Shown: positions 7,036-23,026 of the stretch, piece by piece
How the letters are laid out: each line of letters starts with the position of its first letter
Numbering within the stretch: position 1 is the first letter of the stretch
Assembly (NCBI GenBank): GCA_947630485.1
Contig: CANRHU010000039.1
Coordinates: 1 to 32,526, forward strand
DNA: 32,526 nucleotides
Source of the DNA: an uncultured Lachnospiraceae bacterium
Lineage (GTDB): Bacteria > Bacillota > Clostridia > Lachnospirales > Lachnospiraceae
Direction: 5' to 3'
Notes under the pieces: model-generated
Told to the model about the DNA's origin: nothing
What the model saw: only the letters and a program-made list of their open reading frames with translations
Database searches by the model: none
Made by a program: the position numbers and the translations under genes

Positions 7036-7068
7036 GGGGGCAGATGTTTGGGAAGGCAGGAGGAGCGT

Positions 7069-8481
7069 ATGGAAAGAAGGGTATTGGTGATCGGCGGCGG
7101 CGCGGCGGGCATGACGGCCGCTATCTTTGCCGCGAGATCGCATGCATCTGTGACGGTGCTGGAGCATATGGACCGTGTGGGAAAAAAGCTGCTTTCCACC
7201 GGCAATGGGCGCTGCAATTTCACCAACCGCGATCAGAAGCCGGAGTACTATCGGTGCGGGCAGGAAGGATTTCCGCAGAAAGTTCTCTCACAGTTTTCCG
7301 CCGAACAGACCGTGGCGTTTTTCGGAGAGCTTGGAATTCTCCCGAAGGAGCGTAACGGCTGTCTCTATCCGAATTCCGATCAGGCTTCGTCGATACTGGA
7401 TGTGCTGCGGATGGAGCTTGAGCGGCAGAAAGCGGATGTGCGGACAGGCTGCCGGATAAGCAGGCTTCTCAGGTGCGGGAACCAATTCCGGGCAGAGACG
7501 AATCTGGGTGTTTTTGAGGCGGACGCCGTGGTTCTGGCCACTGGCTCGAAGGCAGCGCCTGCGACGGGTTCGGACGGCAGCGGCTACGAGCTGGCGCGGC
7601 GTCTGGGACACCGCATCCTCACGCCGCTTCCGGCCCTGGTACAGCTGCGCTGCGGGGAGAAGGACTATAAACAGCTTGCCGGTGTCCGCGCGGAGGCGCG
7701 CGTGGATCTGTACGTGGAGGAGGAAAGCAGAAAAGGTGGGAGCGCAGACGGTGCGGAGGGCGCAGACGCGTCGTGGCGTCTGGCGGCGTCGGACTGCGGG
7801 GAGCTTCAGCTGACGGACTACGGGATTTCCGGCATACCGGTGTTTCAGGTCAGCCGCTATGCTTCCGTCGCATTACATAAAGGCCTGCGCGTGAAGGCGG
7901 TAATCGATTTTCTGCCGCATCAGACCAGACAGGAGACGGAGGCCATGACCGCCTTCCGGCTGGAGCAGATGGCAAATGAGACCTGCGAGCGCTGGATGAT
8001 CGGACTGTTTCACAAAAAGCTGGCGGGGGTGCTTCTCAAGCGCGCAGGGATATCCCCCGGACAAAAGGCAGGGGATGTGCCTGCAGGGCGCTGGAAAGCC
8101 TTAATCGGGCAGATGCGCGGTTTTACAGCGACGGTGACGGCGACGAATTCTTTCGAGCAGGCTCAGGTCTGCTGCGGCGGCGTGGATACACGGGAGGTGG
8201 ATCCGCTGACGCTTGCATCAAAACGGACGGCCGGGCTCTACCTGGCCGGGGAGATTCTTGACGTGGACGGGATCTGCGGCGGCTATAATCTGCAGTGGGC
8301 CTGGTCAAGCGGAGCGGTAGCGGGCCGGCATGCGGCCGGGACAGGAACAAGCAAAGCGGCGGCGGGCCGGCATGCGGCCGGGACAGGAACAAGCAAAGCG
8401 GCGGCGGATCGGCATGCGGCCGGGACAGGAACAAGCAAAGCGGCGGCGGATCGGCATGCGGCCGGGAGGGCAGGAAAATGA
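7069..8481 (+). CDS. HI0933/YhiN-family NAD(P)/FAD-dependent oxidoreductase
   Basis: A 470-residue flavoprotein. The N-terminal dinucleotide motif GGGAAG (residues 9-14) is followed by KKLLSTGNGRCNFTN near residue 45, the signature of the HI0933-like (BaiN/YhiN) family. Near the C-terminus GGVDTREVDPLTLASK and GICGGYNLQWAWSSG complete the FAD site. Members are flavin oxidoreductases; one homologue acts in bile-acid dehydroxylation, but substrate cannot be inferred here. The ATG at 7069 was chosen over the in-frame TTG at 7048 because AGGAGG ends five bases before it. The C-terminal ~54 residues are not part of the fold: they are a 14-residue repeat (AGRHAAGTGTSKAA type) from a 42-bp tandem expansion. 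The stop overlaps the next start. Confidence 0.9.
   Translation: MERRVLVIGGGAAGMTAAIFAARSHASVTVLEHMDRVGKKLLSTGNGRCNFTNRDQKPEYYRCGQEGFPQKVLSQFSAEQTVAFFGELGILPKERNGCLYPNSDQASSILDVLRMELERQKADVRTGCRISRLLRCGNQFRAETNLGVFEADAVVLATGSKAAPATGSDGSGYELARRLGHRILTPLPALVQLRCGEKDYKQLAGVRAEARVDLYVEEESRKGGSADGAEGADASWRLAASDCGELQLTDYGISGIPVFQVSRYASVALHKGLRVKAVIDFLPHQTRQETEAMTAFRLEQMANETCERWMIGLFHKKLAGVLLKRAGISPGQKAGDVPAGRWKALIGQMRGFTATVTATNSFEQAQVCCGGVDTREVDPLTLASKRTAGLYLAGEILDVDGICGGYNLQWAWSSGAVAGRHAAGTGTSKAAAGRHAAGTGTSKAAADRHAAGTGTSKAAADRHAAGRAGK
8320..8469 (+). repeat. 42-bp tandem repeat x3.5 in flavoprotein C-terminus
   Basis: Units at 8320-8361, 8362-8403 and 8404-8445 plus a partial unit to 8469. All contain CGGCATGCGGCCGGGACAGG. 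In the coding frame each unit adds 14 residues rich in Ala, Gly, Thr and Lys with one His. The repeat lies immediately before the start of the next gene, so an expansion lengthens only the C-terminus of the first protein. Confidence 0.94.
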
Positions 8482-10115
8482 TACGGATTTCACAGATAAA
8501 GCTTCCGGTTGCGCATACGGAGGAGGACTTGCTGGAAAAAGCGGCCGGAATGCTCCGAGTTCCGCGTTCGGCCATCCGCAGCTGGAGCGTTGCAAAGCGT
8601 TCCATCGACGCCAGGAAAAAGGAACAGATTCTGTTTATCTATACACTGGATGTGAAGCTTGGGGGAATCAGAGAAGCGCAGGCGGTGAAGAGAGCGAAGA
8701 ACCCTCAGATTTCCATCGCGGAGGAGAAGCGATATCATTTTGAAGTGTGCGGGGAAAAGACTTTGGCGCATCCTCCCGTGATTGTCGGAAGCGGTCCCGC
8801 GGGACTTTTTGCCGGTTATCTGCTGGCAGAGGCCGGCTTCTGCCCTTTGATTTTGGAGCGGGGCGACGCGGTGGATATCCGAAGGCAGAAGGTGGACCGG
8901 TTCTGGAGAGATGGTATTCTGGACGGGCAGACCAATGTGCAGTTCGGCGAGGGCGGCGCGGGCACATTTTCGGATGGGAAACTGAACACGATGGTGAAGG
9001 ATCCGTCCGGAAGGAACCGGAAGGTGCTTGAGATTCTTGTCGAACATGGGGCGGATCCGTCGATTCTCTATGATGCGAAGCCACATATCGGTACGGATGT
9101 GCTGGCAGAAGTGGTGAAAAATATCCGCCAGCATGTGATTCAGCTCGGCGGCAAGGTGATGTTCGGCACGCAGATGACCGATCTTTTGCTGGAGCAGGGC
9201 TGCGTAAAGGGCCTGAAAGCCGTGCGCAGGCGGGCGGAAGGATCGGAGGAAGAGCTGACGATTCCCGCGGAGGCGGTCATCCTGGCCATCGGGCACAGCG
9301 CGCGGGATACGTTTGCCATGCTGCTTGGACGCGGCGTTCCCATGCAGGCAAAATCTTTTGCCGTCGGGCTTCGTATTCAGCATCCGCAGAGGATGATCAA
9401 CCGATCCCAGTACGGCGCTGAAGAGTCGGGAATTCTCGGGCCTGCTCCGTATAAGCTGACCCACCAGACGACCGCGGGTCGGGGCGTCTATTCCTTCTGC
9501 ATGTGTCCGGGCGGCTATGTAGTCAATGCGTCCTCGGAACCGGGGCGTCTGGCGGTCAACGGTATGAGTTACCACGACCGGGCCGGCGTAAACGCCAACA
9601 GCGCGCTGATCGTAACGGTGACGCCGGCAGATTTCGGCGGCGAATCGCCTTTGGCGGGCATGGAATTCCAGCGCCGTCTGGAGGAGCTGGCGTATCGGGC
9701 CGGCGAAGGGAAAATTCCTGCGCAGCTTTACGGGGACTTCCGCGAAAACCGCGTCAGCACCGGCTGGGGCGGCGTGGAACCGCAGTTTATGGGAGATGTG
9801 AGGTTTGCCAATCTCCGGCAAACGCTGCCGGGGACGATCTCGGCGGCACTGATTGAGGGCGTGGAGAGTTTTGAGCAGAAGATCAGTGGATTTTCAAGAT
9901 ACGACAGCATTCTCGCCGGGGTGGAGAGCCGCACATCCTCGCCGGTGCGGATTCCCCGCGACGGTCGGTTTGAGAGCGCGGTTGCGGGGCTTTTTCCCTG
10001 CGGCGAGGGGGCCGGCTACGCGGGCGGTATTATGTCCGCGGCGATGGACGGAATGAAGGCGGCGGAAGAACTGGCGAGAAGATACCGGGCGGACGGCTCC
10101 GTCCGCCCGGCGTAA
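8478..10115 (+). CDS. FAD-dependent dehydrogenase, COG2509-like
   Basis: A 545-residue protein. An N-terminal ~90-residue cap-like region (beginning MIRISQIKLPVAHTEEDLL) precedes the dinucleotide motif GSGPAG at residues 104-109. NVQFGEGGAGTFSDGKLNT and a C-terminal GEGAGYAGGIMSAAMDG, which completes the FAD site, are typical of this uncharacterised family found in many Clostridia. The substrate is unknown. The frame is open from 8295 through the upstream 42-bp repeat, but the ATG at 8478 is preceded by GGGAGGGCAGGAAA and matches the family N-terminus. It shares ATGA with the previous stop, so the two flavoproteins are coupled. Confidence 0.88.
   Translation: MIRISQIKLPVAHTEEDLLEKAAGMLRVPRSAIRSWSVAKRSIDARKKEQILFIYTLDVKLGGIREAQAVKRAKNPQISIAEEKRYHFEVCGEKTLAHPPVIVGSGPAGLFAGYLLAEAGFCPLILERGDAVDIRRQKVDRFWRDGILDGQTNVQFGEGGAGTFSDGKLNTMVKDPSGRNRKVLEILVEHGADPSILYDAKPHIGTDVLAEVVKNIRQHVIQLGGKVMFGTQMTDLLLEQGCVKGLKAVRRRAEGSEEELTIPAEAVILAIGHSARDTFAMLLGRGVPMQAKSFAVGLRIQHPQRMINRSQYGAEESGILGPAPYKLTHQTTAGRGVYSFCMCPGGYVVNASSEPGRLAVNGMSYHDRAGVNANSALIVTVTPADFGGESPLAGMEFQRRLEELAYRAGEGKIPAQLYGDFRENRVSTGWGGVEPQFMGDVRFANLRQTLPGTISAALIEGVESFEQKISGFSRYDSILAGVESRTSSPVRIPRDGRFESAVAGLFPCGEGAGYAGGIMSAAMDGMKAAEELARRYRADGSVRPA
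10085..10110. other. Hairpin at convergent gene ends
   Basis: CCGGGCGGAC (10085-10094) is perfectly complementary to GTCCGCCCGG (10101-10110) around a six-base loop, inside the last codons of the COG2509-like gene. The convergent helD gene ends at 10124, eight bases after the other stop. Neither side has a T run, so it is not a classical terminator; it may block converging transcripts. Confidence 0.6.
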
Positions 10116-10123
10116 GCGGCGGT

Positions 10124-13100
10124 CTATGCGTTTCGGCAAAGGTATTCATACAGCTTTAAGATATCGGTTTCTGTCTCGCCGCGCAGGAAGTAGAAGTCCA
10201 GCTGGCCGCATTTCCGAATCTGAATGTAGGAGCCGGCTGACGGAAGATCGCAGCAGACGACGCCGCTTTCCGCGGCGATCAGGAGTCCGTAGCCTGCGTC
10301 GGAGACAATCAGCGGAAACGGGAATTTAGGATTGTCGGGAGATATGACGCCCGCGCGGCCCCGAAGAGGGATCCGCGCCTCGGCGCATTCGGCATTGGCC
10401 GCGGTGAGGCTTTCTTTTTTCGCCCAATCCAGGTAGAGCCAGGCGGAAAAGGATACGTCATTGACCGCTTCCATCTGACGGCAGCAAGCGGCCTGCTCCG
10501 TCAGCAGCGGCATCCTGTCGCGGGTCATATACTGGACGGCGCCGGTGGATTTATTGACGCGCAGGCAGAGCTCGTCGGTCAGAAGCTCAATAAAGCCGCC
10601 GATTTCCCGGTACATCCAGGCTTTATCCTGTCTTTGAACGGCGATTTTCGGATGACATGCCGCGCTCATCTGTCCAAGCTTGGCGAAGGTGACTCGGATG
10701 ATGCGGCTTGTTACCGGGCTTAGGCGGAGAACGCCGTAGCGGCTCTGGAGACAGAGACCGTCCGGCTGCCGGGAGGACCAGCGGACTGCCAGGTCGATCC
10801 GCCCGTGGCCGGGCGGCCGGAGGGAATCCGGAGGCGGGGTCTGCCCGAAGGACGGCTGCGGCCTTGCGGGAGCTTGTCCGCCTGTCCTTTTAAGTTTCGT
10901 AGAAGTAAGTTTCGTAGAAGTCTCTCCGCCCGCTGCTATCGGCGGGGTCAATGTTTGTCCCGCTCTGGCCTTTTTCAGAATGTTTTCCGCATCATAGAGG
11001 TCCGGCATCTGCAGGGATTTCCCTGAAGAGAAGAAGAGGCTGGTCGGCTCTACGGTGGTTTTCTTCTGGAACGCCGGCGAGGAAACGCCCCCTTCCTTCT
11101 GATAGACCGGTTCGGCTTTTGCGGGCTCCTCCGCGATCAGTCCTGTCAAATCCTTATCATAGAGCACGCAGAGCTCGTGGAGCGCCCTGGTGGCCGCCAC
11201 GTAGAGAAGTTTTGCGTGTTCATTGTCAACAGGATAATCCTGTCTGGTCGGATTAAAGAGAAGAACCGCGTCAAATTCCAGACCCTTTGTATATTCGACC
11301 GGAAGCACCATGATTCCTTCGCCGAAGACGGCGTCCTCCAGGCGGCTTCCGATGACAGGAAGAAATTCTCCAAGTTCGTCGGCGGTTCGGGAAGCGCTGG
11401 CGGCGTCCCGACAGATGACGGCCAGCGTGCCGTAGCCCTGTGACTGCCAGAAGGAGAGAATCTGCGCCGCCTTGCGGATCAGGTGCGTTCTCTGACTGTC
11501 CGCCTTACCGGAAACTTTGCGAGGCGGAGGCGTTTCCTGTACCTCCTGTACGGGATTGCCGTGCCGGATGATCGGTTCCACCGGGTAGATGGAAAACGTC
11601 CCGTGCCGCAGGATGCGCGAAGCATAGTTCGAGATTTCGATCGTATTGCGGTAGCTCTTTTTCAGTGTGCGGAAGCTGTCGGTCTCATCACGGATGAGAA
11701 GCGCGCGGAGTTCCTCCCAGTCGTTTAAGCCGCTTCCGAAGCGGATATTCTGGGAGACGTCGCCCATGATGGTGTAGGTACATCCCCGCAGACAGAAGTT
11801 CAGCACGGAATACACCATCATGCCGAAATCCTGCGCTTCGTCGATGACTACATGGTGCGCCTCCTGGATGACCTCCTTTTCGCAGGTTCTGGCGTAGAGA
11901 TAAGCCAGCGCCGCAAGGTCATAGACATCCAGCTTTGCGGCGCGCGCCGGGACGTCGAAGCCCTTTTTCTGCTGTTCCGCCAGAAAATCGTTATACAGCG
12001 AGAAAATGGACAGCTTAAGATTCCGGCCTCCGAACCATCCGCGGAAGGATTTCAGGATCGCCTTTTGTTCATCGCCGGTATATCTGCCGATATGTTCCAG
12101 AAAATGATTGTGAACCTGATTCAAAAGCCGTTCGTTGAGACCGTCGATCTTATTCTGCAGGGAAACGGCCGGGTTCTGGCGGATATATTTTTCGATGGCT
12201 TCGCGGCCAAGCAGAAGGACGCGGCCGGTTCTTCCGTCTGCGTCCCGGCTGCGCCGCGCAGACGGAGCCTGTCCTGGCGATAAGCGCACGGTCGGAGACC
12301 GTCTTAACGAAGAATGCGCGGCCCCGGACTGTCCCTCATCCAGATAAATGTCCTCCCGCGCGAGGTAATTCCACTCCAGCCGGTCGCAGAATGCTTTCAG
12401 ATCCTCAAACCATCCGAGGCTGCCGCGGATATCGCCGCGGACGGCGCAGATCCGGTATTTTTTCTCATCCCATTCCTCATAGAGAAGCCGCGTAAACAGC
12501 TGTTCCATGGTCATCTGGCGCACGCCGCTGACGTCCAGCTCCGGAAGGACGCCGGTGATGTAGTTTAAAAGAATCCGGTTGCTGCCCACGATATAAAAAT
12601 CGTCCGGGCGGAAGTGTTCCGCGTAGTTATAGAGAATATAGGAAATCCGGTGCATGGCGACGGTGGTTTTGCCGGAGCCGGCCACGCCCTGGACGATCAG
12701 GTTGCGGTAGGGCGTCAGCCGGATGATTTCGTTCTGCTCCTTCTGAATCGTGGCGACGATTTCACCGAGAACCGCCTGTTTATTCTTTGCCAGATATTTC
12801 GTCAGAAGCTCGTCGTTGGCGATGACTTCGCTGTCGAAGTAATCCTTAAGCGTCCCGTCCTCAATCTCAAAGGTCCGCTTCAGCTGCAGGTCGATGGGCA
12901 TCTCCTGGCCGCCCGGGGCGGTGTAGGAGCAGCGCCCCAGATTGCTTTCATAGTAAGCGTTGGCCACCGGAGCGCGCCAATCGACGACTACCGGGTGGAT
13001 CGTATCCCGCACAATGCCGCCCCTTCCGATATAGAGGGATTCCTGACGTGACAGCGTTTCGTCCTGAAAAATGATACGGCCGAAATAAGGCTTTTTCAGG

Positions 13101-13348
13101 GCCCGCTTGTTCTTATCCAGCGTCCGCTTCATGTGTTCATGCAGCGTGACCGTGTTGTTAAGATCCGTCAGGGATTCCACGTCGTTGTCATGATAATGCT
13201 CCAGCATATCGTCGATATCGGACTGCATCTTTGCGACCTGTTCACTGTAGCTTTTCGTGTTTTGACGCACGATTCTGATGGTTTCGGCCAGATACTGTTC
13301 TTCGTCGGCGCGTGAGACGCGCGGGAGTTTCTTTTCTTCCTGATTCAC
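10124..13348 (-). CDS. helD: HelD-type UvrD-like helicase fused to a GH31 N-terminal-like domain
   Basis: A 1074-residue protein. Residues 1-740 match HelD, the superfamily 1 motor that strips stalled RNA polymerase. They include an N-terminal coiled coil (~15-90), Walker A GVAGSGKT (221-228), Walker B IDEAQD (502-507), GDVSQNIR (529-536) and motif VI VAATRA (717-722). Residues 740-850 are a low-complexity Pro/Thr/Lys linker. Residues ~850-1074 are foreign to HelD: RYGVLRLSPVTSRIIRVTF, FPLIVSDAGYGLL and QLDFYFLRG with a following ILKLYEYLC resemble the N-terminal beta-sandwich of GH31 glycosidases. The protein stops where the catalytic barrel would begin. A second low-complexity insert is at ~338-376. 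The GTG at 13348 was chosen because GAGGAG sits seven bases upstream; the upstream open frame (to 13423) is AT-rich leader. It has its own consensus promoter. Confidence 0.85.
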   Translation of the reverse strand: MNQEEKKLPRVSRADEEQYLAETIRIVRQNTKSYSEQVAKMQSDIDDMLEHYHDNDVESLTDLNNTVTLHEHMKRTLDKNKRALKKPYFGRIIFQDETLSRQESLYIGRGGIVRDTIHPVVVDWRAPVANAYYESNLGRCSYTAPGGQEMPIDLQLKRTFEIEDGTLKDYFDSEVIANDELLTKYLAKNKQAVLGEIVATIQKEQNEIIRLTPYRNLIVQGVAGSGKTTVAMHRISYILYNYAEHFRPDDFYIVGSNRILLNYITGVLPELDVSGVRQMTMEQLFTRLLYEEWDEKKYRICAVRGDIRGSLGWFEDLKAFCDRLEWNYLAREDIYLDEGQSGAAHSSLRRSPTVRLSPGQAPSARRSRDADGRTGRVLLLGREAIEKYIRQNPAVSLQNKIDGLNERLLNQVHNHFLEHIGRYTGDEQKAILKSFRGWFGGRNLKLSIFSLYNDFLAEQQKKGFDVPARAAKLDVYDLAALAYLYARTCEKEVIQEAHHVVIDEAQDFGMMVYSVLNFCLRGCTYTIMGDVSQNIRFGSGLNDWEELRALLIRDETDSFRTLKKSYRNTIEISNYASRILRHGTFSIYPVEPIIRHGNPVQEVQETPPPRKVSGKADSQRTHLIRKAAQILSFWQSQGYGTLAVICRDAASASRTADELGEFLPVIGSRLEDAVFGEGIMVLPVEYTKGLEFDAVLLFNPTRQDYPVDNEHAKLLYVAATRALHELCVLYDKDLTGLIAEEPAKAEPVYQKEGGVSSPAFQKKTTVEPTSLFFSSGKSLQMPDLYDAENILKKARAGQTLTPPIAAGGETSTKLTSTKLKRTGGQAPARPQPSFGQTPPPDSLRPPGHGRIDLAVRWSSRQPDGLCLQSRYGVLRLSPVTSRIIRVTFAKLGQMSAACHPKIAVQRQDKAWMYREIGGFIELLTDELCLRVNKSTGAVQYMTRDRMPLLTEQAACCRQMEAVNDVSFSAWLYLDWAKKESLTAANAECAEARIPLRGRAGVISPDNPKFPFPLIVSDAGYGLLIAAESGVVCCDLPSAGSYIQIRKCGQLDFYFLRGETETDILKLYEYLCRNA
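10892..10921 (-). repeat. 15-bp perfect tandem duplication in helD linker
   Basis: AAGTTTCGTAGAAGT occurs twice in a row (10892-10906, 10907-10921, top strand), encoding TSTKL-TSTKL in the linker between the helicase and the GH31-like domain. Confidence 0.93.
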
Positions 13349-13491
13349 CGGAATGCTCCTCGTATGATAAAGTAGTAGTGTAAAAAGGGTGTGTACTCCA
13401 AAAAGATAAAAAGGTGACTTCAAAATTAAACAGGCATTTAGCTGTTTTAGATCAGATATATGCAGCGCGGTTTTATAGAAACCGGAATCTA

Positions 13492-13769: not shown

Positions 13770-14636
13770 TTATTGTTTGCTGTTATATGCGCTGGGCATC
13801 CAGGGATATTTCGCTTCATTTTCATGTCCGTACTGCTCCAGCTTCCTGAGCTGTTCCACAATATGGGGGACGTTCAGACGTTCCACCAGTTTCTCGATCA
13901 GCGCCTGTCCTGTGTCGGCCATCTCCTGGCGCGTCTGCGCGTCCGGGATCGGAGTGGTGGGAGCGTGATCGCTGTTTTCGCCGAAGCAGTATCCGACCGA
14001 GCCGCTCTGGTAGGCCAGATTGAAGAGGTCGTTAAACGGGGCGCAGCTCTGCGGCTTCATAGCGGATAATCCGTTCGTCAGCGGAACGTCCTTAAGACGG
14101 CCCATGATCTGGTAGCCGCCGACGAACATGGAATCCAGCAGCTTCATAAAGGCCAGCGGATTGCTCTGCATGGCGTCCGTGCCGAACAGATCCTTCGCGT
14201 GATTGAACATCTGCATGGTCATATCCATGTAAAGGATCGGCACGCCGGTCTCATCATAGAAATCCCTCACCATGGGGCTTACCGTCATATGGGCCGGGCC
14301 GTGGAGGCTTAAGTAGATCTGCCGTTTAAAGCCCTGCCGCAGCAGGCTTCTGGCAATGGCGCCCAGATAGTCGATGCCCTGCCGGACAGAAACCTGTACG
14401 GTCCCTCTTCCCGACGCGGTGGCGCCGGAGTAGAAGTACGGGAGACCGGTCAGCAGAAGTCCGTCACAGGCTTCCGCCATTTTCAGTCCCACGGCCTCGC
14501 TGATGACGGTTTCCACATCCAGCGGCAGTCCGCCGTGCATTTCCACCGTTCCGACCGGGACGATGATGATATCATTTTCTTTTAAATATTCCTGAACCTC
14601 CGCGTTCAGCATTTTGGGGAGTATTCTTGTACGCAT
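13770..14636 (-). CDS. Creatininase-family amidohydrolase
   Basis: A 288-residue cytoplasmic protein. IIIVPVGTVEMHGGLPLD near residues 23-40 matches the creatininase metal site, with Glu32, His34 and Asp40 as the expected ligands. The second conserved block, usually an N-G-H-G-G-N type sequence, here reads SLHGPAH (His112, His116), so part of that ligand set has changed. The family hydrolyses cyclic or linear amides in various pathways; the substrate is not known. AAGGAGG lies seven bases before the ATG. The gene is 27 bases downstream of the symporter gene, so the transported compound may be its substrate or precursor. Confidence 0.85.
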   Translation of the reverse strand: MRTRILPKMLNAEVQEYLKENDIIIVPVGTVEMHGGLPLDVETVISEAVGLKMAEACDGLLLTGLPYFYSGATASGRGTVQVSVRQGIDYLGAIARSLLRQGFKRQIYLSLHGPAHMTVSPMVRDFYDETGVPILYMDMTMQMFNHAKDLFGTDAMQSNPLAFMKLLDSMFVGGYQIMGRLKDVPLTNGLSAMKPQSCAPFNDLFNLAYQSGSVGYCFGENSDHAPTTPIPDAQTRQEMADTGQALIEKLVERLNVPHIVEQLRKLEQYGHENEAKYPWMPSAYNSKQ

Positions 14637-14663
14637 GGTATTGCCTCCTTATTCAGCAGTTTG

Positions 14664-16082
14664 TCAGTTCTTTGCGGCGGCAGCCTTCTTCTCCGCCGTG
14701 TACGCAGCCATTTTGGCCCGGATATCCGGCGTGATATTCCAGACGAACTTAAACGCCAGCCAGCTTCCCAGTGTGAAGATCGCGGGAAGGAGCACGCACA
14801 GAACCTTGATGCCGACGATAACGCTTCCGGCCTGGGTACCGCCTGCAGCGGCTACCGCGGCGTCATAACCGATCCAGCCCAGCATCAGGACGGCAGCCGA
14901 ATTGCCGATGGTCTGGCCGATACGGCGGGACAGGTTGAAGGTGCCGTAGATGGAGCCCTCGGTGCGTTTTCCGGTCAGGTATTCGTTGTAGTCGATGGCT
15001 TCGCCCACCAGGCCCCACTGCATGTAGATGGAGACGCTGCCGAAGGCGGAAGCGATGGTGGTCCAGATCATATGCACCATGGCGGGAACGCTGAACAGCA
15101 TATGGGCGGCGAACAGCAGAAGGTTGGACGCGCAGCCGATCAGCAGGCAGTAGCGGATCATATTCTCCAGACCAAGCTTCTTCGCCAGCTTCGGCGCGAT
15201 GAGGAGCGTTATGAACATGATGGGCATCGAGGCGACGGAGGCCAGACTCATGATGCCGATGCTTCCGAGGACGTCGGCGTACATATAGGTGCCCAGCGTC
15301 TGCGCCACATACTGGTTGGTGCAGATGCAGATGCCGTGGATACACAGGGCCAGGAACGCGCGGTTCCGCTTAAATACCTGGAAAATATCGGAGAATTTAA
15401 TGTTGTCGGCCGCATCCGGAGCGGACGCGACGATGTTGCGTTCCTCGGTCCAGCTGTAATGGAGGTAGCAGAGGACCGCGCCGATCAGGGCGCAGACCGT
15501 TGCCCCAAGGCCGTAGCCGGTGGGGTTGCTGTCGCCGAATTTGTTCAGAAGGATCGGGAAGATCATCATGGGAAGAAGATTGCCGATGGTGCTGCCGAAT
15601 CCCCTGGCCGAGGACAGGGAGGCCCGCTCCTCGTCAGTGTCCGCCATAGCTGACAGAAGCGACCCCATGGGGATATTGAACATGGTGTAGCAGCCCTCAT
15701 ACAGGATCTTGCAGACGAACAGCACGCAGATCAGGGCGGTGCCTTCGAAGAAGGTCGGCACGGTCCAGAAGGCGATGGACGTGATCGCCAGAAGAGGCGT
15801 AGCCCGAAGAAGCCATGGGCGGAACTTGCCCTGCGGATGGGCCTTTTTGGCGAACATCTTGTCCATGAGCGCGCCCATCATCGGATCGTTGACGGCGTCC
15901 CAGACGTTCCAGACCAGCAGAAGAACTGCAAGAACAGCCGTGTTGATCTTAAGAACGTTCACGTAGTAGCGGGTGACCATGGAGCCCATGAGGGCGAAGG
16001 TCATGCATCCGCCGAAATCGCCCAGACCATAGCCTACGATCTGCTTTTTGGTCAGGCCGGTTGCGGGTTTCTTAGACATCAT
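14664..16082 (-). CDS. GPH-family sugar:cation symporter (MelB-like)
   Basis: A 472-residue membrane protein with about 12 hydrophobic segments. The N-terminal IVGYGLGDFGGCMTFALMG and the WDAVNDPMMGALMDK loop with a following GKFRPWLL block are hallmarks of the glycoside-pentoside-hexuronide:cation symporters of the MFS. The substrate cannot be told from sequence. Two ATG codons are adjacent (16082 and 16079); GGAGGA at 16087-16092 is better spaced for the second. It is the first gene of a two-gene reverse operon with the creatininase-family gene and is divergent from an AraC regulator across a 222-base intergenic region, so that regulator probably controls it. Confidence 0.9.
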   Translation of the reverse strand: MMSKKPATGLTKKQIVGYGLGDFGGCMTFALMGSMVTRYYVNVLKINTAVLAVLLLVWNVWDAVNDPMMGALMDKMFAKKAHPQGKFRPWLLRATPLLAITSIAFWTVPTFFEGTALICVLFVCKILYEGCYTMFNIPMGSLLSAMADTDEERASLSSARGFGSTIGNLLPMMIFPILLNKFGDSNPTGYGLGATVCALIGAVLCYLHYSWTEERNIVASAPDAADNIKFSDIFQVFKRNRAFLALCIHGICICTNQYVAQTLGTYMYADVLGSIGIMSLASVASMPIMFITLLIAPKLAKKLGLENMIRYCLLIGCASNLLLFAAHMLFSVPAMVHMIWTTIASAFGSVSIYMQWGLVGEAIDYNEYLTGKRTEGSIYGTFNLSRRIGQTIGNSAAVLMLGWIGYDAAVAAAGGTQAGSVIVGIKVLCVLLPAIFTLGSWLAFKFVWNITPDIRAKMAAYTAEKKAAAAKN

Positions 16083-17331: not shown

Positions 17332-19905
17332 ATGGCGGCTTTTGACCCTATCCTAAGCGGCTGTCCCGGCATGGATCCGATCCTGGATCACATCCGGCTG
17401 GGAGATAATGTGGTTTGGCAGGTATCCGGTATCGACGAGTTTAAGCTGTTCGCCGAGCCGTTTGCCCGGCAGGCGGTGGCCGACGGGCGCAATATCGTCT
17501 ACATCCGCTTCGCCCAGCATGAGCCGGTTCTCACCGACCTCACCGGCATCGACGTGCGCCGTTTTGACCCGGAGGAGGGTTTTGAAAGTTTCACCGTCAG
17601 ACTCCACGACGAGATCACCCGCCGGGGGCGGGACGCCTTCTATGTATTCGACTGCCTGTCCGAGCTCCAGTCGGCCTGGTACACGGATCTTATGATGGGA
17701 AACTTCTTCCGTGTCACCTGTCCTTACCTGTTTGAACTGGACACGGTGGCCTATTTCCCCCTGATCCGCGGACGCCACTCCTTTGACGCGGTAGCCCGTA
17801 TCCGGGACACCACCCAGCTTCTGCTGGACGTGTGCTCCGCGGGGCGGTATGTCTACCTCCACCCCCTCAAGGTGTGGAACCGGTACTCGAACCGAATGTT
17901 CCTGCCCCACTGCTTCGACACACAGACCGGCGCGTTCTCCACCGTCCAGGACGGAGTGGGCACCAGCCGCTACTATCAGGCTCTCCAGCGGATGGAGGCG
18001 GCGAATCAGGACCAGAACTACGACAGCTACGACCGGTTTTTCAGCGCCGCCCGCATGGAGTACGCCCACGGCGGGAATTTAAGCGCCGGGATCGAAGATC
18101 AGCTCATCGCCAGTATGATGACCAGGGACGATCACCTGCGGGAGCTGGTGCGCCGCTATTTCCATCCGCGGGACTATTTCGCCCTACGGGATCGGATGAT
18201 CGGCAGCGGGGCGATCGGCGGCAAGTCCTGCGGGATGCTGCTGGCCCGGAAGATCGCCGGGACCGAACTGCCCGGGGATATGGATGCCCACAGCGAGCCC
18301 CATGACTCCTGGTACATCGGATCCGACGTGTACTACACCTATATTGTGTCCAACGACTGCTGGCGGCTGCGCATCCGGCAGCGCACCGGGGCGGAGTATT
18401 TCACCGCGGCGGAGGAGCTTAAGCAGCACCTGCTCACCGGTGTGTTTCCGGCCAAGATCCGGGAGCAGTTCCTGACCATGCTGGAATATTTCGGCCAGAG
18501 CCCCATCATCGTGCGTTCTTCCAGCTTCCTGGAGGACGGCTTCCACAACGCCTTCGCCGGAAAATACGAGTCGGTGTTCTGCGTCAATCAGGGCGGATCC
18601 CAGGAGCGGCTGGAGGCTTTTGAGCAGGCGGTACGCCGGGTATACGCCAGCACCATGGACGTATCCGCCCTGGAGTACCGCCGTCTGCGGGGGCTGGAGG
18701 ATAAGGACGAGCAGATGGCCATTCTGGTTCAGCGGGTGTCCGGCTCCTGGTACGGGCGGTACTTCATGCCCGGCGCGGCGGGAGTGGGATACAGCCACAG
18801 CGCCTACAAGTGGAACAGGGACATGGATCCGGCAGCGGGGATGCTGCGGCTGGTGATGGGCCTGGGCACCCGGGCGGTAGACCGCACCCGGGAGGACTAC
18901 CCCCGGCTGGCCAATCTGGATCGGCCGGCGGCCACCATCTACACCACCTCCGCCCTGAAGCACCGCTTCTCCCAGCGCTGGGTGGACGTTCTGGACCGGG
19001 AGACCAATCAGATCCGGGAGCTGCCGGCTGACCGGCTGCTGCCCGATCTGCCCCGGTGGTATCTCAATCAGGTGATGGAACATGACTGGGAGGCGGAGGA
19101 TCTGCTGCGCCAGCGGGGCGCCAACGCGAACGTGTGGTTTGTCAGCTGCCAGCGGCTGCTGGAAAACAGAGACTTCACCGGCATGATGAGTCGTCTTTTA
19201 AAGACTCTGGAGCGGGTCTATCAAAGTCCGGTGGACATCGAGTACGCCGTGAATCTGGACGAGAGCGGGGACTTTGTGGTCAACCTGCTCCAGTGCCGTC
19301 CCCTCTACCTGGGCCAGGAGGGCGAACAGGTGGACATTGAGCATCTGCGTCTTAGGGAGACCCTGTTCGACCTCGTGGATTCCTCCATGGGCCCCTCGGG
19401 GGTGCGGGATATCGACGCCGTGGTTTTAGTGGACGCGGAGAAATACTACCGCTATCCTTATGCCCGGAAGTACGACGCGGCGGCAGCCGTGGGCCGGGTA
19501 AATCACTGCCTCAAAGAGAAGGGGAAAAAGGTACTCCTGCTGACGCCGGGGCGGATTGGGACCTCCTCCCCGGAGCTTGGGGTACCGGTGAACTTTGCGG
19601 AGATCGTGGGCTGCACCGCCGTGTGCGAGGTGTCCGACGCCCGGGCGGGCTACCAGCCCGAGCTGAGCTATGGCAGTCATATGTTCCAGGATCTGGTGGA
19701 GGCCGAGATCCTGTACGGCGCGGTGTGGAACAACGAGAAGACGCTGGTCTACCGGCCGGAGGCGCTGAACCGTCTTCCGGATCTATTTTCGGAGCTCTGC
19801 CCCGACGCCCCGGCGCTCGCCGGGATGATCCGGGTCGCGGAGACTCCGGGGCTGCGGCTTTGGCAGGACGCGGTGTCCGGTCGGGCGGTGTGCGGCTGGG
19901 AGTGA
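17332..19905 (+). CDS. PPDK/PEP-synthase-like ATP-grasp protein without phosphohistidine domain
   Basis: An 857-residue cytoplasmic protein. Residues 1-270 are an N-terminal region with a RecA/KaiC-like feel (GDNVVWQVSG, then FYVFDCLSEL) but no intact Walker A. Residues ~290-670 match the ATP-binding domain of PEP synthase and pyruvate phosphate dikinase: GAIGGKSCGM (294-302), PIIVRSSSFLEDG and FAGKYESVF (391-416), and VNLLQCRPLYL. The C-terminal part has LLTPGRIGTSSPELGVPV, as in uncharacterised PEP/pyruvate-binding proteins. No swivelling-His motif or PEP-binding barrel is visible, so it is not a standard PEP synthase. AAGGAGG lies before the ATG. It uses CCC and CTG more freely than its neighbours, which hints at different ancestry. 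It is the first gene of a four-gene set with the next three. Confidence 0.85.
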   Translation: MAAFDPILSGCPGMDPILDHIRLGDNVVWQVSGIDEFKLFAEPFARQAVADGRNIVYIRFAQHEPVLTDLTGIDVRRFDPEEGFESFTVRLHDEITRRGRDAFYVFDCLSELQSAWYTDLMMGNFFRVTCPYLFELDTVAYFPLIRGRHSFDAVARIRDTTQLLLDVCSAGRYVYLHPLKVWNRYSNRMFLPHCFDTQTGAFSTVQDGVGTSRYYQALQRMEAANQDQNYDSYDRFFSAARMEYAHGGNLSAGIEDQLIASMMTRDDHLRELVRRYFHPRDYFALRDRMIGSGAIGGKSCGMLLARKIAGTELPGDMDAHSEPHDSWYIGSDVYYTYIVSNDCWRLRIRQRTGAEYFTAAEELKQHLLTGVFPAKIREQFLTMLEYFGQSPIIVRSSSFLEDGFHNAFAGKYESVFCVNQGGSQERLEAFEQAVRRVYASTMDVSALEYRRLRGLEDKDEQMAILVQRVSGSWYGRYFMPGAAGVGYSHSAYKWNRDMDPAAGMLRLVMGLGTRAVDRTREDYPRLANLDRPAATIYTTSALKHRFSQRWVDVLDRETNQIRELPADRLLPDLPRWYLNQVMEHDWEAEDLLRQRGANANVWFVSCQRLLENRDFTGMMSRLLKTLERVYQSPVDIEYAVNLDESGDFVVNLLQCRPLYLGQEGEQVDIEHLRLRETLFDLVDSSMGPSGVRDIDAVVLVDAEKYYRYPYARKYDAAAAVGRVNHCLKEKGKKVLLLTPGRIGTSSPELGVPVNFAEIVGCTAVCEVSDARAGYQPELSYGSHMFQDLVEAEILYGAVWNNEKTLVYRPEALNRLPDLFSELCPDAPALAGMIRVAETPGLRLWQDAVSGRAVCGWE

Positions 19906-19988: not shown

Positions 19989-20054
19989 GAAGTGTGGGCG
20001 AAATCGATTTGCGACCAGCCCGATGAGAGATATCATTTTGATGGAAGTGAATGG

Positions 20055-20078
20055 GCGCTCCAATAGGGGCGCTTTTCC
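20055..20078 (+). terminator. Intrinsic terminator-like hairpin in the leader (possible attenuator)
   Basis: GCGCTCC (20055-20061) pairs with GGGGCGC (20066-20072) around AATA and is followed by TTTTCCTTT. It sits 35 bases before the start of the circularly permuted ATP-grasp gene and about 90 bases after a possible promoter. It could end readthrough from the PPDK-like gene or attenuate the downstream genes. The upstream leader has a GGGC/GCCC stem around 19996-20021; I recognise no riboswitch class. Confidence 0.6.
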
Positions 20079-20113
20079 TTTATCTCCGATTTTGCGAGAA
20101 AGGACGTAAAGAC

Positions 20114-21430
20114 ATGCTGCTGGATCTGGTAGACCACAAAGAATCGATCAACCGCCTGCTTGCGCGCTATGGCGTCAAGTTTGGTATCTACAAGAATAAT
20201 GTATTTCATGAGCAGTTATTTCCGTTCGACCCGATTCCGCGGGTCATCACCCAGAAGGAGTTCGATTATCTGAACCGGGGGCTTTCCCAGCGGGTGCGGG
20301 CGCTGAACTGCTTTCTGGCCGACGTGTATTCGGAACGGAAGATCGTGAAGGACGGCGTCATTCCGGCTGACTTCATCTATTCCTCCAAGGGGTATCTGCC
20401 CCAGTGCGAGGGCATCACGCCGCCGAAGAAGATTTACAGCCATATCTCCGGTATCGACCTGGTGCAGGGGCGGGACGGCGACTGGTATATCCTGGAGGAC
20501 AACCTGCGGATTCCGTCAGGGGCGTCCTATCCGATGATCGCGAGGGATTTGACGCGGCAGGCAGCGCCGGAGGCGTTCACCCGCCGACATGTGCTGGATA
20601 ACCGCAACTACGCGTCCATGCTCCGCGAGACCATGGATTATGTGAATACAGGCGGCATCAACGTGGTGCTGACGCCGGGGCGCTACAACGCCGCGTTCTT
20701 TGAACATTCCTATCTGGCGGAACGGTCTGGGGCCGTTCTCTGTATGCCCCAGGATCTGGCGGTGGAGGATAATAAGCTTTATTACCGGAGCTATGAGGGA
20801 AAGAAAATGCAGGTGGGCGCGGTTTACCGGAGGCTTTCCGACGAATATCTGGATCCCTTATGCTTCCTGCCGGAGTCGCTGATCGGCGTGCCGGGTCTTA
20901 TGAATGTCTACGCTTCCGGCAATGTGGCCGTGATCAACGCGCCGGGTAACGGCGTGGCGGACGATAAGGGCATTTATTATTTTGTGCCGCATATGATCCG
21001 GTATTATCTGGGCGAGGACGCGATTCTGAAAAATGCGCCCACCTATCTGGCGTTCTACGAGAAGGACCGGAGCTTTATTCTGGAGCATTTAAACCGGCTG
21101 GTGGTAAAGGATGTGTCGGAGGCAGGCGGCTACGGCGTCGTCTTCGGAAGCAATTTAAGCGCCGGGGAGCTTAAAAAGCTGGCAGATGCCATCAAGGCGG
21201 AGCCCAGGCGGTTCATTGCCCAGGAGGTCATCGATTTCGTGGATCTGATGATCGTGGACGGAAATGAGCAGGTGCCGAGAAAGGCGGATCTGCGGGCCTT
21301 CGTGCTGGCCGGCGAGAAGACGCGGGTGTGGCCCAGCGGGCTGACCAGATTCTCGCGGAATCCGGATTCGTTTGTGGTGAATTCTTCGCAGGGAGGAGGT
21401 TTTAAGGATACATGGGTATTATCTCATTAG
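20114..21430 (+). CDS. Circularly permuted ATP-grasp protein (COG2308)
   Basis: A 438-residue protein. It shows the COG2308 order of blocks: an N-terminal region with FPFDPIPRVI, ALNCFLADVYSERKIVKDG, GIDLVQGRDGDWYILEDNLRIPSG and NAPGNGVADDKGIY, then a C-terminal ATP-binding part with VVKDVSEAGGYGVVFG and RRFIAQEVIDF. COG2308 proteins are predicted ATP-dependent carboxylate-amine ligases and usually lie next to alpha-E (COG2307) and transglutaminase-like (COG1305) genes, as here. AGAAAGGACG precedes the ATG at 20114; the frame is open upstream to 20051 but that start lies in a hairpin. It overlaps the alpha-E gene by 19 bases. Confidence 0.92.
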   Translation: MLLDLVDHKESINRLLARYGVKFGIYKNNVFHEQLFPFDPIPRVITQKEFDYLNRGLSQRVRALNCFLADVYSERKIVKDGVIPADFIYSSKGYLPQCEGITPPKKIYSHISGIDLVQGRDGDWYILEDNLRIPSGASYPMIARDLTRQAAPEAFTRRHVLDNRNYASMLRETMDYVNTGGINVVLTPGRYNAAFFEHSYLAERSGAVLCMPQDLAVEDNKLYYRSYEGKKMQVGAVYRRLSDEYLDPLCFLPESLIGVPGLMNVYASGNVAVINAPGNGVADDKGIYYFVPHMIRYYLGEDAILKNAPTYLAFYEKDRSFILEHLNRLVVKDVSEAGGYGVVFGSNLSAGELKKLADAIKAEPRRFIAQEVIDFVDLMIVDGNEQVPRKADLRAFVLAGEKTRVWPSGLTRFSRNPDSFVVNSSQGGGFKDTWVLSH

Positions 21431-22080
21431 AGAGAGCCGATCATCTGTACTGGATCGGCCGGTATACGGAGCGGGTGTTTACGACGCTGGTGACGTTTTT
21501 TGATTTCTATGACCAGATGATCGACATGGACTTAAACGCTTATCAGGATTACTGTAAAATGGTGGCGATCCCGGACATTTACGGGGACAAAGGGACATTT
21601 AACAGGCGGTATCTCTTCGATCAATATGACCCGAATTCGGTTTACAGCAATCTGGAGAGGGCCTATGACAACGCCATCGTGATCCGCGACGAGATCAGCA
21701 GCTACACGCTGGCTTACATTCAGCTGGCGCTGGATCATCTGCAGGCGGCCTCCGGTTCGGCGGCGCCCCATTATGACCTCCAGCAGGTGATCGACGACCT
21801 CCACGCCTTCTGGGGCTGTGTGGACGACCGGGTGGACGATGAGGAGGCCCGCAATATCATGAAGTGCGGTAAATATCTGGAACGGCTGGATTTGTATATC
21901 CGGCTGGGCTATCCGAAACGGGATATCGAGCGCGGTTACAGCAAGTTTATAAACCGGCTGGACAGGGTGCACCTGCAGTATCACGAGGAGTGCCGCGGGA
22001 AACTGGATGAGATCATCGGCTCCGGCAGCGTGAAGGAGCGCAGGGACGAGGCTGTGGCGGCGGTGTGGAATTTCTTCTGA
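21412..22080 (+). CDS. Alpha-E domain protein (COG2307)
   Basis: A 222-residue, mainly helical protein. The N-terminal SLERADHLYWIGRYTERV is the signature of the alpha-E family, which co-occurs with circularly permuted ATP-grasp proteins and may bind or orient their substrate. It is shorter than the ~310 residues often seen in this family. GGGAGGAGG (within the end of the upstream gene) is well placed before the ATG, and the 19-base overlap points to translational coupling and a shared complex. Confidence 0.9.
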   Translation: MGIISLERADHLYWIGRYTERVFTTLVTFFDFYDQMIDMDLNAYQDYCKMVAIPDIYGDKGTFNRRYLFDQYDPNSVYSNLERAYDNAIVIRDEISSYTLAYIQLALDHLQAASGSAAPHYDLQQVIDDLHAFWGCVDDRVDDEEARNIMKCGKYLERLDLYIRLGYPKRDIERGYSKFINRLDRVHLQYHEECRGKLDEIIGSGSVKERRDEAVAAVWNFF

Positions 22081-22105
22081 GAATTGTTATCTGAGGTGGG
22101 ACAGT

Positions 22106-23026
22106 TTGAAGGTTTTGCAGGTTCAGTATGAGATGCGGCTTACATTTACCGCGCCGGCGGCGGATCATTATTTTCAGTTCCGGTGTCTGCCGATGGAAGA
22201 TGATTCGCAGACGGTGGAGAAGCTGGAGCTCGCGGTGGATCCCGCGTGCGCGGTTCATGAGAGGATTGACGGCTTTGGCAATCGGATGTGCTATGGGGAG
22301 ATTCTGTCGCCGCATGATTCGCTCTGCGTTCGGATGGGCGCGAGAGTGCGGGTGGAGAGAAAACCGGTTCGTTGTAGTTTTGGAAAACGTAGAATGCGAT
22401 CAGTCAGTATAGAAACGCTGAGTCTAAGCATTGCTGGGAATCTGAAACCAGAATCGGAGCCATTATGTTCGGATACTGCAGAAATTGCACAGTATCCGCT
22501 TATAGATAGTCCGGCAGGGAAAGTTCCTGGAATCGTCTATGCGTATCCATCGGAACTGACCAGGCCGGATCAGGCGATGAGGGAGTGGCTTTCTGCCGTT
22601 CGGGAAAATTATAATTCTGAATACGGATTCCCGGAATATCTGATGCACCGGCTGTATCAGAGGCTTGCCTATGTCCAGGGGCAGACCCATATTGGGACTA
22701 CTGCGGCGGAAGCCTTCGCGCTTTCAGGAGGCGTCTGCCAGGACTATGCGCATATTTTTGCGGCGATGTGCCGTATGGCCGGCTTCCCGGCCAGGTATGT
22801 GGCGGGCATGGCCGTCGGCGAGGGCGCGACCCATGCGTGGACGGAGGTATGGCAGGACGGCGCGTGGATCGCTTACGATCCGACCCATGACTGCGTGGCT
22901 GACGACCGGTATATCAAGCTGTCCCATGGCCGGGATTTTATTGACTGTTCCGTTGACAGAGGGAGCTTTTTCGGCGCGGGAGGACAGGAGCAGACGGTGT
23001 ATGTGAAGGTGGCGGAAACATCATAG
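22106..23026 (+). CDS. Transglutaminase-like cysteine protease-fold protein (COG1305)
   Basis: A 306-residue protein. The N-terminal ~150 residues form the beta-rich region that starts YEMRLTFTAPAADHYFQFRCLP in this family. The catalytic triad is visible: Cys in GGVCQDYAHIF, His in ATHAWTEVW, Asp in YDPTHD. No signal peptide is seen. Such proteins in COG2307/2308 operons are predicted to cleave or transfer the peptide product of the ATP-grasp enzyme. The start is TTG at 22106 after GAGGTGGG; the in-frame ATG at 22133 would remove conserved residues. The middle of the gene (about 22370-22640) is visibly more AT-rich than both ends. Confidence 0.9.
   Translation: MKVLQVQYEMRLTFTAPAADHYFQFRCLPMEDDSQTVEKLELAVDPACAVHERIDGFGNRMCYGEILSPHDSLCVRMGARVRVERKPVRCSFGKRRMRSVSIETLSLSIAGNLKPESEPLCSDTAEIAQYPLIDSPAGKVPGIVYAYPSELTRPDQAMREWLSAVRENYNSEYGFPEYLMHRLYQRLAYVQGQTHIGTTAAEAFALSGGVCQDYAHIFAAMCRMAGFPARYVAGMAVGEGATHAWTEVWQDGAWIAYDPTHDCVADDRYIKLSHGRDFIDCSVDRGSFFGAGGQEQTVYVKVAETS

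What the first reader, a model, noticed from the sequence alone, without database searches (positions are those of the whole stretch)
10124..10801. HelD helicase fused to a GH31 glycosidase N-terminal-like domain
The reverse-strand helD frame continues about 330 residues past helicase motif VI. After a low-complexity linker the last ~225 residues carry blocks (RYGVLRLSPVTSRIIRVTF, FPLIVSDAGYGLL, QLDFYFLRG-ETETDILKLYEYL) that I recognise from the beta-sandwich preceding the catalytic barrel of GH31 enzymes. It ends exactly where that barrel would start, so it would be a carbohydrate-binding-like or scaffold domain on an RNA polymerase-recycling motor. I know of no described HelD with such a domain. 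It could sense a sugar or simply act as a new protein-interaction module.
Basis: partly seen in the sequence, partly recalled or inferred. Interest (0 to 1): 0.85.

Follow-up and report, generated by a model that had tools for sequence, protein, structure and literature searches.

The report
RNA polymerase motor with borrowed glycosidase domain
In gut bacteria of the family Lachnospiraceae, HelD, a motor protein that frees stuck RNA polymerase, often carries at its end a spare domain taken from a sugar-cutting enzyme, which has lost a motif shared by those enzymes and probably now helps the motor hold a partner.

Summary

It is no artefact: 24 of 299 sampled family genomes carry it, as do named isolates. 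The HelD tree shows one origin; order and phylum samples showed none outside the family. The domain is under purifying selection (median dN/dS 0.157, linker 0.418). GLGQ, in 21 of 21 GH31 enzymes, is in 0 of 94 fused domains; median charge moved from -8 to +4.

Best explanation: an enzyme domain exapted as a tethered docking module, like PcrA's Tudor domain. Partner unknown; sugar sensing disfavoured, not excluded.

Prior art: one Methods sentence of a 2020 HelD paper mentions HelD-like "DUF4968" proteins. New variant of a known kind.

The parts
10124..13423 (-). Whole fused HelD reading frame, 1,099 codons from TTG 13423; likely start GTG at 13348 (1,074 aa)
   Evidence: HelD
12734..13348 (-). 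N-terminal region of HelD (residues 26-230), which should hold the secondary-channel arm
   Evidence: Alignment A5; DWRAP motif at residue 148, in 50 of 50 aligned fusions; the arm assignment is by homology to B. subtilis HelD, not modelled here
11129..12733 (-). UvrD-like motor core (residues 231-765): Walker A GVAGSGKT (residue 246), DEAQDF (528), motif VI AATRALHE (743)
   Evidence: Pfam UvrD families, motif positions, PDB HelD hits
10853..11128 (-). Variable low-complexity linker rich in A, P, K and S; 92 aa here, 71-160 aa in 50 aligned fusions
   Evidence: Median dN/dS 0.418 and 11% mean identity to the window; composition and charge
10793..10852 (-). Short leader (FGxxPxxxLRPxGHxxID) conserved in most fusions, before the part alignable to GH31
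   Evidence: Alignments A1 and A5; GH31 enzymes align to the profile from position 18-43 onward
10127..10792 (-). GH31 N-terminal beta-sandwich-like domain (residues 878-1099)
   Evidence: Profile search, AlphaFold model, structural alignment, the genome search matches to frames of which five were scanned and are GH31 by Pfam

Best explanation
An ancestor of a Lachnospiraceae HelD acquired, once, the N-terminal beta-sandwich of a GH31 glycosidase at its C-terminus. The domain has been kept as a folded module on a tether of about 70-160 residues. Shown here: HelD identity of the motor, GH31 homology and predicted fold, one origin within the rows sampled, purifying selection on the domain and much less on the linker, loss of a motif found in all GH31 relatives compared, and a switch from acidic to basic. 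Inferred: the domain no longer serves catalysis or GH31-type sugar contact, and acts as a docking or anchoring module that binds RNA polymerase, nucleic acid or an RNAP-associated factor and so raises the local concentration or stability of HelD on stalled complexes, as the tethered C-terminal Tudor domain does for PcrA. Which partner it binds is not known.
Against: The basic shift could reflect stability or drift; the window's own core charge is only +2, and the 94 domains are related, many from close species, so the p-value overstates the evidence. The 18 dN/dS pairs share members and are not independent. Domain dN/dS is about twice that of the helicase, so constraint is weaker than on the motor. 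Gene context gives no clue: near relatives (L034, L068) share some neighbours with the window, but the more distant loci among the 12 listed do not, judged by eye from the first residues.
Confidence: 0.6

Rival explanations
1. The domain is a sensor: it binds a sugar, sugar phosphate or glycan and so couples RNA polymerase recycling to carbohydrate supply.
For: The fold is that of carbohydrate-active enzymes; in the window an MFS/sugar transport protein (PF13347) is the second gene upstream of helD.
Against: In glucosidase II the pocket is formed by the barrel together with the N-domain's N-loop (PMC4742823, passages); the barrel is absent here. GLGQ, which by my alignment lies at that loop (inference), is gone in 94 of 94 fusions. 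The transporter was not recognised beside helD in the other loci listed (judged by eye).
Confidence: 0.1
2. The domain is a structural cap or stability element without a separate partner (for example it folds back on the motor core).
For: Purifying selection demands only a fold; many conserved residues are glycines, prolines and aromatics shared with GH31.
Against: The linker is hypervariable in sequence and length (11% mean identity, 71-160 aa), which suits a free tether better than a fixed contact. Unfused relatives do without it.
Confidence: 0.2
3. The domain replaces the function of the RNA polymerase delta subunit, which works with HelD in Bacillus.
For: Delta (TIGR04567) passed its cut-off in 0 of 24 carrier genomes (one match below the cut-off, in G278), with positive controls in B. 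subtilis and L. lactis.
Against: Delta was also found in 0 of 20 genomes with an unfused HelD, so its absence is not tied to the fusion. Delta's tail is acidic (PMC7749165, passages) whereas this domain and linker are basic.
Confidence: 0.07
4. Assembly error or a decaying read-through remnant.
For: Two relatives are broken between motor and domain (L045; L099). The window's assembly is a 118-contig draft.
Against: In-frame fusions in dozens of independent genomes including isolates; selection on the domain; one clade.
Confidence: 0.01

Closest known systems
HelD Class I (B. subtilis HelD; structures 6wvk, 6zca, 6zfb)
   Same: Motor core and overall arrangement; E 4.7e-67 to the PDB chain, NCBIfam HelD_BACSU E 8.3e-94; DWRAP motif, a HelD motif according to PMC8655204
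   Different: About 340 extra C-terminal residues (linker plus beta-sandwich). Larsen et al. 2021 ascribe HelD length variation to the two arms (PMC8655204, section 3.5). The score is below NCBIfam's equivalog cut-off (315 against 419 bits), as is that of an unfused relative (358)
GH31 glycoside hydrolases, N-terminal domain (Pfam PF13802 Gal_mutarotas_2)
   Same: Homologous sequence and predicted fold over nearly the whole domain
   Different: No catalytic barrel; GLGQ absent in 94 of 94; a stretch with T-DG columns (95-100% in the enzymes) is a gap in the fusions; basic instead of acidic
HelD-like 'DUF4968 domain-containing' proteins mentioned by Newing et al. 2020 (PMC7749167)
   Same: Probably the same architecture: HelD-like proteins named after a second domain. 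That DUF4968 is a GH31 N-terminal family in Pfam is recalled, not from a call
   Different: In the main text only a Methods sentence; supplement not readable here
PcrA/UvrD with C-terminal Tudor domain
   Same: SF1 motor with a small C-terminal domain on a long, apparently disordered linker, used to bind RNAP (PMC8318588, passages)
   Different: Different fold and origin; the HelD domain's partner is unknown

Membership tests
HelD | UvrD-like SF1 motor motifs (Walker A, DEAQD, motif VI) | tested here: met
   Pfam UvrD families; motifs at residues 246, 528 and 743
HelD | DWRAP motif and sequence similarity to solved HelD | tested here: met
   DWRAP at residue 148, in 50 of 50 aligned fusions; 6wvk E 4.7e-67
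HelD | NCBIfam HelD_BACSU equivalog cut-off (419 bits) | tested here: not met
   315 bits for the window, 320 and 337 for two fused relatives, 358 for an unfused relative. So it is HelD-like of the Class I kind, not an equivalog of B. subtilis HelD by that curated rule
HelD | Two arms inserted into RNAP channels; RNAP recycling activity | not testable with these tools
GH31 N-terminal domain (as a homologous domain) | Beta-sandwich fold and sequence profile of GH31 N-domains | tested here: met
GH31 N-terminal domain (as a homologous domain) | Pfam PF13802 gathering score (27 bits) | tested here: not met
   The window is not matched by PF13802 at E up to 10. 11 of 24 members match, best E 4.1e-5, bits not shown; L040 scores 22.0 bits. 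Two GH31 enzymes proper (L058, L061) also lack a PF13802 match at E 0.01, so the model is not sensitive here
GH31 glycosidase (as an enzyme) | Catalytic TIM barrel | tested here: not met
   The frame stops after the N-domain; no PF01055 match in the window protein
GH31 glycosidase (as an enzyme) | GLGQ motif present in the GH31 relatives compared | tested here: not met
   0 of 94 fusions against 21 of 21 enzymes; that it defines GH31 at large was not tested

The most novel reading that the evidence does not exclude
The domain is a ligand-responsive part of the transcription machinery: a former glycosidase domain on HelD that binds a carbohydrate or metabolite at a new site and thereby tunes RNA polymerase recycling to nutrient supply in Lachnospiraceae, where the fused protein is often the only HelD.
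Probability: 0.08. Interest if true: 0.85.

Novelty: new variant of a known kind. Interest (0 to 1): 0.55.

Why it matters
It is a clear case of an enzyme's accessory domain reused on an RNA polymerase motor. It is conserved across many genera of a major gut family and traceable to one fusion event, with unfused relatives available for comparison. If the domain docks on RNA polymerase it would define a new contact surface and a new way of recruiting HelD in bacteria in which no delta subunit was found. It allows a direct test (with and without the domain) of what recruits HelD to stalled complexes.

Tried and rejected
Rejected readings: misassembly or remnant (conserved fusions, selection). 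Replacement of delta as the reason for the fusion (delta equally not found in unfused relatives). An origin from a GH31 gene beside helD: no match to four GH31 proteins or to the domain in the 20 fetched unfused loci, 9 to 16 kb each (20 of at least 28 unfused HelDs of this subfamily in the list). One genome (L061) has a GH31 gene just upstream of an unfused HelD of another subfamily, but in the opposite order. A sampled GH31 subgroup as donor: the 21 enzymes fall on one side of a single branch and the 30 fused domains on the other, so no donor clade is identified.

Results that weaken the reading: the window's own domain alone gives no significant database hit; PF13802 does not match the window; the HelD_BACSU cut-off is not reached. 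One of the 71 records is titled Acetivibrio (L131), a genus of another family; its protein is 62-64% identical to those of Parablautia, so a mislabelled metagenome bin, a naming matter or a transfer are all possible. Two further records have titles that name no family (L085, L120).

The tree is a quick search with SH-aLRT only. In the combined alignment six duplicate loci and the second copy of the window were dropped from A4. One search used two peptide patterns from the seven closest domains, so it finds close relatives and its 71 loci are a lower bound. In one search at most three candidates per genome were scored, so absence of a second HelD was taken, where all were scored; that used one HelD query at E 1e-15, and some of the genomes are incomplete. 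Of the eleven order genomes with a frame over 1,000 aa, six were fetched and show the domain at the frame's end, three (window, G028, G290) had the motor checked (for the last two, for the window), and G618 and G627 were not looked at further.

Literature: searches. The word HelD cannot be separated from the verb 'held', so searches are noisy. Only PMC7749167 in that library holds both DUF4968 and helicase. Supplements could not be read.

Full report
What is there. The reverse-strand frame 10124-13423 encodes 1,099 codons. The first 765 residues are a HelD motor: phmmer finds the B. subtilis HelD chains (6wvk and others) at E 4.7e-67 and the mycobacterial HelD chain at 8.3e-30. Pfam gives UvrD families and NCBIfam HelD_BACSU E 8.3e-94, although under that model's cut-off. 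Motor motifs and the DWRAP motif are in place.

The extra C-terminus. After motif VI about 350 residues follow: a linker and a domain. Alone, the window's domain hits nothing significant, with only a hint of GH31 xylosidases (E 0.43 and 0.78). A search of 299 genomes of the same family found 41 with a match at E 0.001 or better. In 24 of them, the window's included, there is a match in a HelD-type frame. Checking the 23 others, 20 have motor and domain in one frame, two are cut by a contig end (L035, L036) and one is frame-broken (L045). The other 17 genomes match in frames of 506 to 860 aa, apart from one of 133 aa. Five of these that I scanned (L056, L057, L058, L061, L065), and the window genome's own 645-aa homologue, are GH31 enzymes by Pfam's barrel model. 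A profile of the 24 domains (A1) lists 15 PDB sequences at E up to 10; the top 12, all at E 0.0036 or better, are GH31 (some by recalled family). The other three are a forkhead-associated domain (0.87), one more GH31 enzyme (1.1) and aggrecan (1.8). In a small set of frames the same profile scores GH31 enzymes of the order down to E 2.1e-48.

Distribution and origin. A scan of the genome-contig collection with the seven closest domains returned 71 loci from 92 candidate stretches. The record titles name Lachnospiraceae or genera of it, except three (L085 'uncultured bacterium', L120 'Bacillota bacterium', L131 'Acetivibrio'; for the last see Tried and rejected). Isolates among them are Acetatifactor muris, Eisenbergiella porci, Parablautia muri and P. 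intestinalis, and Lachnospiraceae bacterium 10-1. In 65 of 71 the whole motor and the domain lie in one frame, in 2 part of the motor and the domain (contig-cut), and 4 do not show it (L099 frame-broken; L113, L116 and L136 contig-cut). Seven of the 71 appear to be the same contigs as, or from the same assembly as, loci of the first search. In 392 genomes of the order, matches in frames over 1,000 aa were seen in 11 genomes, all in the window's family; matches in other families lay in frames of at most 833 aa. In 398 genomes spread over the phylum only the window's own genome matched at E 1e-20. A tree of the motor part with 105 rows (83 labelled fused, 22 unfused) puts all fused rows in one clade of 84 (SH-aLRT 98). 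The row in it labelled unfused is the frame-broken L045, and the nearest unfused relatives are L197-L200. That is one fusion event as far as sampled. In 24 carrier genomes a second, unfused HelD was found in 8 and none in 15; in one (G006, 67% complete) that query found no HelD. So the fused form is often the only HelD.

Selection and change. Over 18 pairs of close relatives, which share members, median dN/dS was 0.052 for the N-terminal region, 0.084 for the helicase, 0.418 for the linker and 0.157 for the domain. Linker length ranges from 71 to 160 in 50 sequences, with 11% mean identity to the window, against 48% for the domain. Comparing 94 fused domains with 21 GH31 enzymes, GLGQ is in 21 of 21 enzymes and 0 of 94 fusions; a stretch with T-DG columns in the enzymes is a gap in the fusions; a cysteine (window C1058) is kept in 99% of fusions and is not the GH31 consensus. 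Over 216 shared columns the median net charge is +4 in fusions (range -2 to 13; window +2) and -8 in enzymes (range -16 to 2); restricted to 15 enzymes of the same family it is -9. These rows are related, so this is a description rather than an independent test. In glucosidase II the N-domain's N-loop forms part of the active-site pocket and one residue of it contacts the +1 sugar (PMC4742823, passages). That the GLGQ region is this loop is my inference from strand positions and alignment.

How it most likely works. HelD enters RNA polymerase with two arms and removes nucleic acid (PMC7749167 and PMC7749165, start of abstracts and passages). Here a folded, basic beta-sandwich without the enzyme's barrel hangs from the motor on a variable tether. 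The closest working parallel is PcrA, whose C-terminal Tudor domain on a long, apparently disordered linker binds RNAP (PMC8318588, passages). I therefore take the domain as a docking module for RNAP, nucleic acid or an associated factor. The homology, single origin and constraint are shown; the docking role is inferred. Delta, which works with HelD in Bacillus, was not found over its cut-off in carriers (0 of 24) nor in genomes with unfused HelD (0 of 20), so it does not explain the fusion.

What is known. Larsen et al. 2021 (PMC8655204; outline and abstract, section 3.1 part 1 of 2, section 3.5, appendix and passages seen) describe three HelD classes and ascribe length differences to the two arms; no C-terminal domain is mentioned in what I saw, and DUF4968 does not occur in its text. 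Newing et al. 2020 state in Methods that sequences were also chosen from 'DUF4968 domain-containing protein' hits (74 and 37) for their HelD-like parts. So the architecture was probably retrieved then. No paper describing it was found by the searches.

Verdict. The finding is real and its interpretation largely right: a conserved fusion, of one origin as sampled, of a HelD motor with a GH31-derived domain. It is a new variant of a known kind, of moderate interest until its partner is known.

Noticed in passing
8306-8467: A 42-bp tandem repeat (3.9 copies, 95% matches) where two long frames overlap (7048-8481 and 8295-10115); both frames read through it.
   Followed up: no
20051-23023 (+): Cluster of circularly permuted ATP-grasp, Alpha-E and transglutaminase genes, preceded by a PPDK_N-type protein at 17332-19902.
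   Followed up: no
13773-16082 (-): Creatininase-family amidohydrolase and an MFS/sugar transport protein (PF13347) directly upstream of helD on the same strand; not recognised beside helD in the other loci listed.
   Followed up: partly
L061:7078-12058: In G263 a GH31 enzyme gene lies about 430 bp upstream of an unfused HelD of another subfamily, same strand.
   Followed up: partly
L045 (G149), about 10919-11028: A member of the fused clade whose motor and domain lie in two overlapping frames: a recent break or a sequencing error.
   Followed up: no
L002:469-2406: The window's genome also has a short (645 aa) GH31 protein in which Pfam matches only positions 2-176 of the 328-position barrel model, with an N-domain match above cut-off.
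   Followed up: no
G032:C53:7444-8241 (-): A HelD of the other subfamily (35% identity to the window's) lies in an open frame of 1,032 aa; G032 is not among the genomes with a match to the GH31-like domain, so it may carry a different extension or just a long open frame.
   Followed up: no
L131:2-2743: A fused HelD, 62-64% identical to Parablautia proteins, in a record titled Acetivibrio, a genus of another family.
   Followed up: partly
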